Positions 16,272 to 19,328 of a DNA stretch of 64,000 nucleotides are shown here, piece by piece. Below the pieces are notes generated by a model. It worked only from the letters and a program-made list of their open reading frames with translations, was not told the origin of the DNA and did not search any database. The stretch lies in the NCBI RefSeq assembly GCF_000497045.1, contig NW_015961959.1, positions 1-64,000 of the forward strand. The letters are read 5' to 3'. The stretch is from Kalmanozyma brasiliensis GHG001 (taxonomy: Eukaryota; Basidiomycota; Ustilaginomycetes; Ustilaginales). A program made the position numbers and the translations under genes. Within the stretch, counting starts at the first letter, position 1. Each line of letters opens with the position of its first letter.

Positions 16272-19200
16272 TCACTGTTGAGCCTGAGCGTCGGCTGACT
16301 TATCGTGCTGACCGTCTAGATACAGCCACGCCGCATAGTCGGCGATCAAACCGGAGACGACGATCCAGCCGAAGGTGGTGTTGGAGCAGAACTTGCGCCA
16401 ACAGTCCCAGCGGTCGTCGAGCTGCACTGTTCGAATTTGCCAGGCCAGATGACTGGCAGCGCCAGCAAGAGCCACGCAGAAGAACGGGTGGTGGTGCGCC
16501 AACGTTTCCAAGATCGGGTACGACGAGGACAGTGTGTCCAGCATTGACGGCGAAAAGACGAGGTCGCCGACGGTGGAGCCTGGGGCGCGTTCCAGAAGTG
16601 CCTCTGCCGACGGTGCGATGGCAGGCGGGATGGCCTTCGAAGCGCTGTAGCCGAACAGCCCGATCGTACCCGCTGAAAAGGCCGACAGCACGGGCTTGGT
16701 CTTATCGCCAAACAGCAGCGCCGTCGACTTGACCCCGGCGTGGACGTCGTCCGTCTTATCTTGGTGCGCATAGATCGTGTCATACACCAGCGTCCAGAAG
16801 ATCGATCCGGCGTAGAGGGGCAGCACCACAGCCCAATCGACCGCCCCTGCGACAGCAGACCATCCCAGCATGGCGCCCCAGTTGAATGCGAATCCGAGCA
16901 CCAGTTGCGGCCAGTAGGTCACCCTCTTCATAAGCGGATACAGCACCACCACGCCCAACGAGCCCGCGCCGAGCACGATGCTGTACAGGTTGAGATTGAC
17001 CAGCACGGCCAGTCCTGCACTGAGTTGGACGCCAAGGAAGCACAGAGCTTGGAACTGGGTGACATCGCCAGCCGCCAGCGGTCGCGTCTTGGTACGCTCC
17101 ACCATGCGGTCCATCTTGACATCCCACATGTCGTTGATGGTGCATCCGGCGCCGCGCATGACGATGGCGCCGACACCAAAGAGCATCGTGTAGAAGAGCG
17201 GGGTGGTGTAGCTGAGTCCGAGGGTGTGCGAGGCGAGGACGATGGACCAGGCGCAGGGCCAGTAGAGCAACCAGGTTCCGATGGGCTTGTCGATGCGGCT
17301 CAGGGCGAGGTATGGCTGAATGCTGAATGGCTTTTTTGCTGTAGTCGTGCCCGCTGGTGCGGTGGTCGTCGAGTCGGTGGCAAGCTGAGAAGCCACGCTT
17401 TTGAGCGATTCGACCCCCTTTGTCGCCGACGAGTCGACATTGCTGCGACGCCTGGTGCTGCTGTAGTATCTGACGTTGGGGACGTTGTTTCGGCCCCCTC
17501 GGGAAACACTCGAGCGTGCCGATGTCGAGTAGTGACGACGTGGCTCACTTCCGTTGGCGTTCTTCTTCTTCGGCTTGAGCTTCGAATGGTCGTCCTGCAC
17601 ATTGTCTGGCTGTCCGTCTCCGTCCTTGTCCTCTGCCTCATGCGAGGCGCTCGCCTCACCCTGTCCTTTCCCGTCCGCATCTCCGTCCTCTTGCTCTTCG
17701 GCATCGCCCTTCTTGGAGCGGAAGCTGGCGGCCTCGTGCTTGCGTATGATCTTGAGCGCCTTCTTGTTCTGCTTTCCTGCTTTGGTCTCACCCTGGTCCC
17801 ATTCCAGATCATAGTCCTCAGCGACCTTCTTGATGGTCTTGCGCAGATCCTTGACTTCCTCGATGAGCTCCTGGTATCGCTCGACGTTGAAACCCTTTTC
17901 GATGTAGAGCTTCTGCTGCCGCCTGGAGGTGGTCTCGTTGAGCACAGCACGATACGAGACCTCGCGGTTGTGGATGAGGAACCAAATGTAACCGCCCAGA
18001 ATGGTGCCTAGACCAGTGAGGTAGGTGACAGGTTCCATGACGTCCCAGCCCAGCTCGGTGCAGAAGGTGAGGAAAGCGACGGATCCCCACCAAGCACTCA
18101 GAATGGCGACACCGGCAAAGGAGAGACGCTTTGTGCCCGAGTGCGCGATCTGGTCGCATTCTGCCTTGAGGTGAACGAGGTGTTCAATTTGTTCGGTCTT
18201 TGCGTAGAGACTGGCTCGCAGAAAGCGTGTGCGGTCTTCGAAGGATGGCACGGTGACGTAGACGTTGCGCTCGCCGATGCGGATGACAAAGGAGCCGATA
18301 CGGGCGGCATCTCGGAGGAAGTCGCCGATGCCGGTAGCAGGTGACCAACGCTTACCATCAGCAGCGCGAGTGTGGAAGGAGATGGGTGGGTCACCAAGCG
18401 GGTCGAGAAAACCTTGACGAAGGAGCATGTCCCTCATTTCGATTTGCTCATCGGTGAGGTGTACGCGTTTGTCCTTGCGCTCCGGTGACGACCGTGGCCC
18501 CACTGGGATACTGACGGTGTCCTTGTCCTTGTCGTTAGAGTCTGAGGATTTTGGCTGCAATCGCTCCTTCTTTTCCAGATCCTTCTGATGCTGACTTGGC
18601 TCGGGACTTGGGCCCTCTGCACGGATGAGATTGGCAATGTAGCTGAGCGGCTGAGCGCTGTGGAGGAGAAAGACGACGCTGTGTGCTGGAGCATCTGCAT
18701 CGTACTCGTCCGCCTCGATGTCTGAGGGCTCGCCATTCTCTGGACCGTGAAGATTGGCGTGAGATCGGTGGTTCACTTGTGACACAGGTGGACCTGGTGT
18801 CTCTGCGGCTTGCTCCCATGGAGCATCTGAGATGGCTTTGCGTTCGATCTCTTCGACCTGAGATCGCTGCTTGTCATTGTTACGTTCCGCTCTGGCTCTG
18901 GCCGATGAATGCTTGGATGACGGAGAGGATGGATCCGAGCTTGGTGGCTGCAGAGGCAGGGTGAGCTTGAAGAGGCTTGACTTTGTGAACGCGAGGTAGC
19001 CCTGGTCTTGCTCCTTTCCTAGCTTGATGGTGCTGTTATGCTGGCTGTTCTCATCCGCTGGTTCCGCCGAGCTCGGATAGGTGGTCTTGACTCCCGAGGG
19101 CGTGGTGGCATAGCCTCGAAAGCTTGATGGTGGGATGACGGCTCGTATTGACGACGGTTGCCGTGGGCTGAGGCTGCTGCGCAGTGAGAATGTTCTCGAA

Positions 19201-19328
19201 GCGACCCTGCAAGGCTGTGGTACCGAAGCAAGTTCCCTTGCACTGCCCGCAGCTCCAATGCAGCATATCGCATGATGACTGCGCGAGCTCGAGCCTGGTC
19301 GGATCAGCCGCACTGGAAAGGCCGACAT
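16272..19328 (-). CDS. Fused mitochondrial calcium uniporter (MCU) and 4-hydroxybenzoate polyprenyltransferase (COQ2)
   Basis: This is one uninterrupted frame of 1018 codons from the ATG at 19328. Residues 1-75 look like a mitochondrial presequence (Arg/Ser rich, ending near RGYATTPSG). About 300-560 is an MCU domain: a beta-rich N part, coiled coil, a first membrane helix, the pore signature WDVMEP at about 428-433, a second helix, and a C-terminal coiled coil with FNVERYQEL. A charged linker (565-590) leads to RRHYSTSARSS and VRYYSSTRRRS (about 590-620), which read like a second presequence. About 665-1018 is a complete UbiA-type COQ2 with PYLALSRIDKPIG, NDMWDVKMD near 729 and YDTIYAHQDKTDD near 848. 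No methionine occurs between WDVMEP and the second COQ2 helix, so COQ2 has no private in-frame AUG. Both activities belong in the inner membrane. Whether the product is cleaved in two is unknown. Confidence 0.88.
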   Translation of the reverse strand: MSAFPVRLIRPGSSSRSHHAICCIGAAGSARELASVPQPCRVASRTFSLRSSLSPRQPSSIRAVIPPSSFRGYATTPSGVKTTYPSSAEPADENSQHNSTIKLGKEQDQGYLAFTKSSLFKLTLPLQPPSSDPSSPSSKHSSARARAERNNDKQRSQVEEIERKAISDAPWEQAAETPGPPVSQVNHRSHANLHGPENGEPSDIEADEYDADAPAHSVVFLLHSAQPLSYIANLIRAEGPSPEPSQHQKDLEKKERLQPKSSDSNDKDKDTVSIPVGPRSSPERKDKRVHLTDEQIEMRDMLLRQGFLDPLGDPPISFHTRAADGKRWSPATGIGDFLRDAARIGSFVIRIGERNVYVTVPSFEDRTRFLRASLYAKTEQIEHLVHLKAECDQIAHSGTKRLSFAGVAILSAWWGSVAFLTFCTELGWDVMEPVTYLTGLGTILGGYIWFLIHNREVSYRAVLNETTSRRQQKLYIEKGFNVERYQELIEEVKDLRKTIKKVAEDYDLEWDQGETKAGKQNKKALKIIRKHEAASFRSKKGDAEEQEDGDADGKGQGEASASHEAEDKDGDGQPDNVQDDHSKLKPKKKNANGSEPRRHYSTSARSSVSRGGRNNVPNVRYYSSTRRRSNVDSSATKGVESLKSVASQLATDSTTTAPAGTTTAKKPFSIQPYLALSRIDKPIGTWLLYWPCAWSIVLASHTLGLSYTTPLFYTMLFGVGAIVMRGAGCTINDMWDVKMDRMVERTKTRPLAAGDVTQFQALCFLGVQLSAGLAVLVNLNLYSIVLGAGSLGVVVLYPLMKRVTYWPQLVLGFAFNWGAMLGWSAVAGAVDWAVVLPLYAGSIFWTLVYDTIYAHQDKTDDVHAGVKSTALLFGDKTKPVLSAFSAGTIGLFGYSASKAIPPAIAPSAEALLERAPGSTVGDLVFSPSMLDTLSSSYPILETLAHHHPFFCVALAGAASHLAWQIRTVQLDDRWDCWRKFCSNTTFGWIVVSGLIADYAAWLYLDGQHDKSADAQAQQ

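What the first reader, a model, noticed from the sequence alone, without database searches (positions are those of the whole stretch)
16272..19328. One frame encodes a calcium uniporter (MCU) fused to COQ2
Seen: a single 1018-codon frame contains the MCU pore motif WDVMEP between two helices, then a full UbiA/COQ2 domain with both Asp-rich motifs. No in-frame methionine lies between WDVMEP and the second COQ2 helix, so COQ2 cannot start at its own in-frame AUG. Known: MCU and COQ2 are normally separate nuclear-encoded inner-membrane proteins. Inference: an essential ubiquinone enzyme is made as a polyprotein with a calcium channel, coupling their dosage. I know of no description of this pairing.
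Basis: partly seen in the sequence, partly recalled or inferred. Interest (0 to 1): 0.85.

Follow-up and report, generated by a model that had tools for sequence, protein, structure and literature searches.

The report
Mitochondrial polyprotein joining MCU and COQ2
In smut fungi the gene for a mitochondrial calcium-uniporter-like protein and the gene for a coenzyme Q enzyme have become one continuous reading frame, which most likely makes a single precursor that mitochondria then cut in two.

Summary
In detail: window 19328-16272, minus strand, is one uninterrupted 1018-codon frame with Pfam MCU (363-488) and UbiA (689-898; above the NCBIfam cut-off for COQ2-type enzymes) and no in-frame Met from M431 to M715. 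20 database proteins (12 named species; one is this gene) have the same order, in Ustilaginales and Violaceomyces. In Sympodiomycopsis, an Exobasidiomycete, both are separate proteins. No other MCU or COQ2 match was found in the genome. The junction joins a full MCU tail to a presequence-like stretch before COQ2: 20 of 21 linkers hold RX[FYIL][SA][ST] (mean 1.48, shuffled 0.05). Best reading: one precursor, cut in the matrix by MPP, as with yeast Arg5,6. Cleavage is inferred. 'Calcium channel' needs a qualifier: this is the fungal MCUP type, and one study found no mitochondrial Ca2+ uptake for MCUPs. A second 1537-codon frame in this genome has the same design: CCDC90/MCUR1-like + TauD dioxygenase + COX10-type. 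The pairing is conserved and seems undescribed in the papers searched; the principle is known.

The parts
16272..19328 (-). Single 1018-codon frame: MCU (MCUP type) followed by COQ2
   Evidence: same order in 20 database proteins
19110..19328 (-). N-terminal presequence of the MCU part, residues 1-73, with RGY|AT (R71) as the likely processing motif
   Evidence: alignment, motif scan; cleavage point inferred
17865..18242 (-). MCU domain PF04678 (residues 363-488)
18030..18047 (-). WDVMEP pore motif (residues 428-433)
17604..17630 (-). DKDGDGQPD (residues 567-575), a mark of the natural MCU C-terminus
   Evidence: a like motif in 10 of 23 unfused MCU proteins scanned, in nine of them 13-27 residues before the end
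17457..17540 (-). Internal presequence-like stretch RRHY|STSARSSVSRGGRNNVPNVRYY|SS (residues 597-624), Arg-rich, free of Asp and Glu
   Evidence: cleavage points inferred
16635..17264 (-). COQ2 / UbiA domain PF01040 (residues 689-898)
17109..17123 (-). First Asp-rich motif of COQ2 (D736xxxD740)
16746..16760 (-). Second Asp-rich motif of COQ2 (D857xxxD861)

Best explanation
The gene makes one precursor: N-terminal presequence, MCUP-type uniporter homologue, acidic tail, internal presequence, COQ2. The first presequence takes the chain into mitochondria. MCU leaves its C-terminus in the matrix (recalled) and COQ2 needs its N-terminus there, so the linker lies in the matrix, where the processing peptidase MPP (then Icp55) cuts at RHY|ST and/or RYY|SS and releases MCU and COQ2 as separate inner-membrane proteins made one to one. 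Shown: the frame, its conservation among predicted proteins, one detected copy, the full MCU tail, the conserved motifs, no in-frame COQ2 start here. Inferred: translation as one chain, the topology in this species, and the cut.
For: Uninterrupted frame with both domains complete. 20 fused database proteins in two orders. Trees put the 20 fused rows in one group with modest support (MCU 77/60 and 84/70; COQ2 82/49 in the tree that leaves out P0162, P0169 and P0255). 20 of 21 linkers (19 of 20 distinct genes) hold the motif, mean 1.48 against 0.047 shuffled; background 0.41 per 1000 internal residues in 75 ORFs, this gene included. PMC8847149 (passages) gives RX(F/Y/I/L)|(S/A)(S/T) for Arabidopsis ICP55, calls it similar to yeast and mammalian sites, and reports internal MPP cutting of yeast Arg5,6. 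PMC11047366 (passages) puts the human COQ2 N-terminus and Asp motifs on the matrix side by prediction. No hydrophobic segment in the linker (max Kyte-Doolittle 0.05, windows from 475 to about 668). No other MCU or COQ2-type match in the genome. 5 of 11 unfused COQ2 proteins of related fungi have such a motif before their core (Cys allowed). A second frame of the same design exists.
Against: No protein or transcript evidence. Violaceomyces, the most distant fused member, lacks the motif as written. 6 of the 11 unfused COQ2 proteins lack it, and of four stand-alone mitochondrial frames read in this genome two (COX15, one CCDC90) have it near the N-terminus and two (COX11, Rsm22) do not. The internal stretch has few hydrophobic residues, and no import or cleavage predictor was run. 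The rows are related, so 20 of 21 is not independent evidence. The Met-free linker is not universal: 9 of 21 rows have a Met in the counted linker and two more just before helix 1, leaving 10 of 21 rows (9 genes) without any. With P0162 in the COQ2 tree the fused rows are not one group.
Confidence: 0.68

Rival explanations
1. The two parts stay joined: a true bifunctional protein in which each MCU subunit carries a tethered COQ2, placing ubiquinone synthesis at an MCU assembly.
For: Topology allows it: a linker of about 150 residues without a hydrophobic segment between two matrix-side ends. Fusion conserved in two orders.
Against: The linker keeps presequence-like motifs on the COQ2 side in 20 of 21 rows while the rest of that side varies in length and sequence; a pure tether would not need them.
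Confidence: 0.14
2. COQ2 is also or only made separately, from an internal promoter with a spliced or non-AUG start in the linker; the frame stays open because the presequence is coding.
For: The COQ2-side stretch looks like a presequence. Another frame of 170 codons is open across the linker (17300-17812). With donor and acceptor letters alone, 144 combinations would join an out-of-frame ATG of the linker to the COQ2 frame. 11 of 21 rows do have some in-frame Met between the MCU coil and COQ2 helix 1.
Against: With a branch-point motif required the linker gives 0 candidates; three other parts of the gene give 11, 29 and 12 and two give 0 (GT donors). The linker scan also required the acceptor before about residue 700, so the comparison is uneven. 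No in-frame ATG here. 24 further ATGs (all frames) follow the main ATG up to residue 664, so leaky scanning from the MCU start is unlikely. The acidic MCU tail up to the junction is conserved in frame.
Confidence: 0.14
3. Annotation or assembly artefact: two neighbouring genes run together.
For: Other COQ2 fusions in the same search (DEAD-box, amidase and other partners) look like such errors. Short or split relatives exist: P0050 and P0156 (same source and contig length), P0154, P0155, P0162, P0084.
Against: The frame is read here from the DNA without introns. 19 further proteins from other genomes have the same join. P0155 is 296 of 299 identical to the end of fused P0011 and lies on a contig of 2358 bases, too short for the whole frame. 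P0050 shows frame-shifted letters by eye.
Confidence: 0.04

Closest known systems
Yeast Arg5,6 tandem precursor, cut internally by MPP (as told in PMC8847149, passages; primary paper not held)
   Same: One frame encoding two mitochondrial proteins, with an internal cleavage signal at the junction.
   Different: Arg5 and Arg6 are enzymes of one pathway (recalled); here both parts are multi-span inner-membrane proteins of unrelated pathways. Cutting is reported there, inferred here.
Fission yeast Etp1 and Rsm22-Cox11 (named in PMC8847149; their make-up is recalled)
   Same: Composite precursors containing an inner-membrane biogenesis protein behind an internal signal.
   Different: Other partners. 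In this genome the COX15 and COX11 frames are 629 and 342 codons, judged stand-alone by length only.
Fungal MCU (MCUP) proteins with solved structures 6dnf, 6dt0, 6d7w, 6c5w (that they are fungal is recalled)
   Same: Same domain; best-scoring structural relatives of the N-terminal half (199-223 bits).
   Different: They stand alone.
Second frame in this genome: CCDC90-like + TauD + COX10-type UbiA (P0271)
   Same: Uninterrupted frame with a membrane prenyltransferase last; its three R.[FYIL][SAC][ST] motifs (587, 632, 1138) all lie between domains.
   Different: Three proteins, other partners, no such motif at its own N-terminus; conservation in relatives not tested. A Met (566) stands before the second protein.

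Membership tests
MCU / PF04678 | Pfam domain above curated cut-off | tested here: met
   102.2 bits against 30.8
MCU / PF04678 | DxxE pore motif between two helices | tested here: met
   D429-E432 between hydrophobic segments 402-420 and 434-452; invariant in 21 rows
Animal-like calcium uniporter (MCU with EMRE/MICU1) | EMRE partner encoded in the genome | tested here: inconclusive
   No PF10161 match, but the control genomes gave none either
Animal-like calcium uniporter (MCU with EMRE/MICU1) | Closer to animal MCU than to fungal MCUP | tested here: not met
   199-223 bits to the four best structures (fungal: recalled), 35-38 to chains named Calcium uniporter protein, mitochondrial, 35-52 over all other MCU chains listed; no tree with animal MCU was built
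Animal-like calcium uniporter (MCU with EMRE/MICU1) | Mitochondrial Ca2+ uptake | not testable with these tools
   MCUPs tested in PMC7423614 gave no uptake (section 7 read); structural papers on fungal MCU reported Ca2+ conduction (recalled, not read)
COQ2 (UbiA family) | UbiA domain with DxxxD, YxxxK, DxxxD motifs | tested here: met
   159.9 bits; residues invariant in 21 rows
COQ2 (UbiA family) | 4-hydroxybenzoate prenyltransferase rather than haem o synthase (COX10) | tested here: met
   TIGR01474 336.4 bits (cut-off 275.45) against TIGR01473 67.7 (cut-off 210.3); enzyme activity not testable
MPP-cleaved mitochondrial tandem precursor | Two mitochondrial proteins in one uninterrupted frame | tested here: met
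MPP-cleaved mitochondrial tandem precursor | Internal presequence-like stretch with cleavage-type motif at the junction | tested here: met
   20 of 21 rows; not met in Violaceomyces; no predictor was run
MPP-cleaved mitochondrial tandem precursor | Two mature proteins produced by MPP | not testable with these tools
   needs proteomics or in vitro cutting

The most novel reading that the evidence does not exclude
Smut fungi produce parts of their inner-membrane machinery as polyproteins: MCUP-COQ2 and CCDC90/MCUR1-like-TauD-COX10 are two members, and in both a homologue of a calcium-uniporter component is tied to one of the genome's two detected UbiA prenyltransferases (ubiquinone; haem A). That could point to an unrecognised functional link between MCUP/CCDC90 proteins and quinone or haem A supply, and so suggest what MCUP does in fungi, where its calcium role is in doubt.
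Probability: 0.2. Interest if true: 0.8.

Novelty: new variant of a known kind. Interest (0 to 1): 0.58.

Why it matters
It adds a conserved natural case to the few known mitochondrial tandem precursors, the first I know of in which both parts span the inner membrane several times (from memory; the rows listed by the paper searches showed no such case). It would fix COQ2 output to MCUP output at synthesis and gives a testable hint about MCUP, whose function in fungi is disputed. It also probably explains why some unfused MCU proteins carry COQ2 names in databases.

Tried and rejected

Search for further polyproteins in 264 kb (window plus 200 kb of contig C12): 75 non-overlapping ORFs of 250 aa or more gave 4 strict internal hits in 3 ORFs; only this gene also had a strict N-terminal hit. 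The N-terminal criterion found 1 of 75, so it is insensitive, and genes with introns or at stretch edges were missed; the scan shows only that such frames are not frequent among long intronless ORFs there. Of four mitochondrial families looked up (CCDC90, COX15, COX11, Rsm22) one of the two CCDC90 copies lies in a composite frame; the others were judged by frame length and by reading, not scanned with Pfam.

Spliced COQ2 start: the first scan found 0 in every part of the gene and was too strict to count; the relaxed ones gave 0 in the linker with a branch motif and 144 without, which is uninformative.

Alignment of unfused COQ2 N-termini with the linker: presequences too variable to align; a motif scan of the 11 found 5 with the motif.

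Rows dropped in the second trees, against the first: MCU P0054, P0067, P0068, P0069, P0071, P0076, P0077, P0105, P0119, P0131, P0136; COQ2 P0162, P0169, P0255. P0002 (same gene, other 5' model) was left out of both. With P0162 in, the fused COQ2 rows need two changes; P0162 is a 265-aa piece beginning at a Met within the COQ2 domain, so whether its gene is fused is unknown.

EMRE search uninformative. Plasmid search empty, as expected for a fungal gene. Protein searches scored only the candidates sharing most words (7993, 7995, 7994); searches list the best 120 only.

Full report
Observation. The frame lies on the minus strand, 19328 to 16272, 1018 codons without a stop. Pfam finds MCU at 363-488 and UbiA at 689-898, both far above cut-off; NCBIfam's model for 4-hydroxybenzoate octaprenyltransferase matches above its cut-off, that for haem o synthase far below. 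The Met positions (1, 298, 301, 431, 715 and later) confirm that no in-frame AUG lies between WDVMEP and COQ2 helix 2. The COQ2 motifs and the MCU pore motif are invariant in the 21 aligned rows. Codon usage is best in this frame in the tail and, by a small margin, in the linker, but not in the first 70 codons.

Where it comes from. A database protein from Kalmanozyma brasiliensis is 100% identical over 90% of the frame. That entry (P0002, 936 aa) has another 5' end, which skips the R.YAT region found in 16 of 21 rows; the plain frame is the more credible model.

Conservation. 20 database proteins have MCU followed by UbiA: one is this gene, 11 come from other named species (three Sporisorium, three Ustilago, Melanopsichium, Pseudozyma hubeiensis, Moesziomyces aphidis, Testicularia cyperi, Violaceomyces palustris), 8 are unnamed. 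Kalmanozyma and Testicularia are Ustilaginales, Violaceomyces is Violaceomycetales, both Ustilaginomycetes. In Sympodiomycopsis kandeliae, an Exobasidiomycete, MCU and COQ2 are separate proteins on contigs of different length (P0051, P0167). Tilletia, Malassezia, Ceraceosorus guamensis and Exobasidium appear with an unfused COQ2 (whose length limits exclude full fusions), and none of them among the fused rows. Trees of the two halves put the 20 fused rows in one group with modest support: MCU 77/60 and 84/70, COQ2 82/49. With the 265-aa piece P0162 included, the COQ2 rows are not one group. One fusion in the ancestor of the two orders is the simplest reading, not a proven one.

Anatomy of the junction. 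Ten of 23 unfused MCU proteins scanned hold a DxDGDGxPD-like motif, nine of them 13-27 residues before their end. All 21 fused rows keep it (20 as D.DGDGQPD; residues 567-575 here), so the MCU part is complete to about residue 580-594. Directly after it comes RRHYSTSARSSVSRGGRNNVPNVRYYSSTRRR, Arg-rich and without acidic residues (net charge +4 in 601-620, after -7 in 561-580). It holds RHYST and RYYSS, which fit RX(F/Y/I/L)|(S/A)(S/T), given in PMC8847149 for Arabidopsis ICP55 and called similar to yeast and mammalian sites (passages). In 21 rows 20 have at least one such motif in the linker, mean 1.48 against 0.047 in shuffled linkers (Cys was allowed at the S/A place but none uses it; the rows are related). 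Internal parts of 75 ORFs in 264 kb have 0.41 per 1000 residues, this gene included. The MCU N-terminus has the same kind of motif (RGYAT). Of four stand-alone mitochondrial frames read in this genome, COX15 (RSYAT) and CCDC90 (RVFSS) have it near the N-terminus, COX11 and Rsm22 do not. 5 of 11 unfused COQ2 proteins have it before their core (Cys allowed). Violaceomyces lacks it in the linker.

Topology. PMC11047366 (passages) places the human COQ2 N-terminus and Asp motifs on the matrix side by prediction. The MCU C-terminus is in the matrix (recalled). No hydrophobic segment lies between them. The junction should therefore sit where MPP works. Internal cutting by MPP is reported for Arg5,6, and composite precursors with such signals are named for several fungi, in the review.

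Could COQ2 be made on its own? There is no in-frame AUG here. 9 of 21 rows have a Met in the counted linker, at differing places; from the MCU coil to COQ2 helix 1, 10 of 21 rows (9 genes) have none. So no start is conserved. With a branch motif required there are no splice candidates in the linker. 24 further ATGs follow the main one up to residue 664. An internal promoter with a non-AUG start cannot be excluded. The genome search found one MCU match and two UbiA matches, the other being COX10-type, so COQ2 most likely comes from this frame.

What the MCU half is. Its four nearest solved structures score 199-223 bits, the other MCU chains 35-52. PMC7423614 (passages and section 7) calls the proteins kept by most fungi MCUP, says they keep DXXE but lack other conserved residues, and reports no mitochondrial Ca2+ uptake for those tested. 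Structural work reported Ca2+ conduction for some fungal MCU proteins (recalled). 'Calcium channel' is therefore open here.

A second case. The other UbiA match led to G000:C10, L006 2452-7062 minus: 1537 codons without a stop, with CCDC90-like (309-516), TauD (847-1106) and UbiA (1247-1492); the UbiA part is above cut-off for haem o synthase (258.2 against 210.3), the TauD part nearest to gamma-butyrobetaine dioxygenase but below its cut-off. Its only R.[FYIL][SAC][ST] motifs are at 587, 632 and 1138, all between domains and none at its N-terminus. The CCDC90 family holds MCUR1 and yeast Put6/Put7; PMC7519068 (passages) reports a role in proline use and mentions complex IV biogenesis. A stand-alone CCDC90 gene exists too. 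If its hydrophobic segment (503-521) acts as an anchor, the following parts might end on the other side of the membrane, a difficulty I could not resolve.

Novelty. Paper searches for the pairing and for the second frame (no papers) showed no description in the rows listed; that covers only the held papers and not every hit. The pairing looks undescribed; the principle is known.

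Noticed in passing
L006:2452-7062 minus (G000:C10): A 1537-codon frame joins CCDC90/MCUR1-like, TauD-type dioxygenase and COX10-type domains with presequence-like stretches between them.
   Followed up: partly
window 19000-19328: The database model of this gene (P0002) has another 5' end that removes the conserved R.YAT presequence region; it is probably wrong.
   Followed up: partly
P0054 and P0060: MCU-only proteins are named COQ2 or 4-hydroxybenzoate polyprenyltransferase, probably carried over from the fused proteins.
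   Followed up: no
window 17604-17630 and MCU tails of relatives: A DxDGDGxPD stretch, resembling Ca2+-binding loops of EF-hand or thrombospondin type 3 kind (resemblance recalled), sits near the C-terminus of nine of 23 unfused MCU proteins scanned. No Pfam match for this stretch.
   Followed up: partly
window 14984-16144 plus; 4432-5541 minus: The convergent neighbour is a cytochrome c/c1 haem lyase; a polyprenyl synthetase gene lies at 4432-5541.
   Followed up: no
P0050 and P0156 (same source, contigs of 170187 bases): One assembly seems to have the two halves split; P0050 looks frame-shifted by eye.
   Followed up: no
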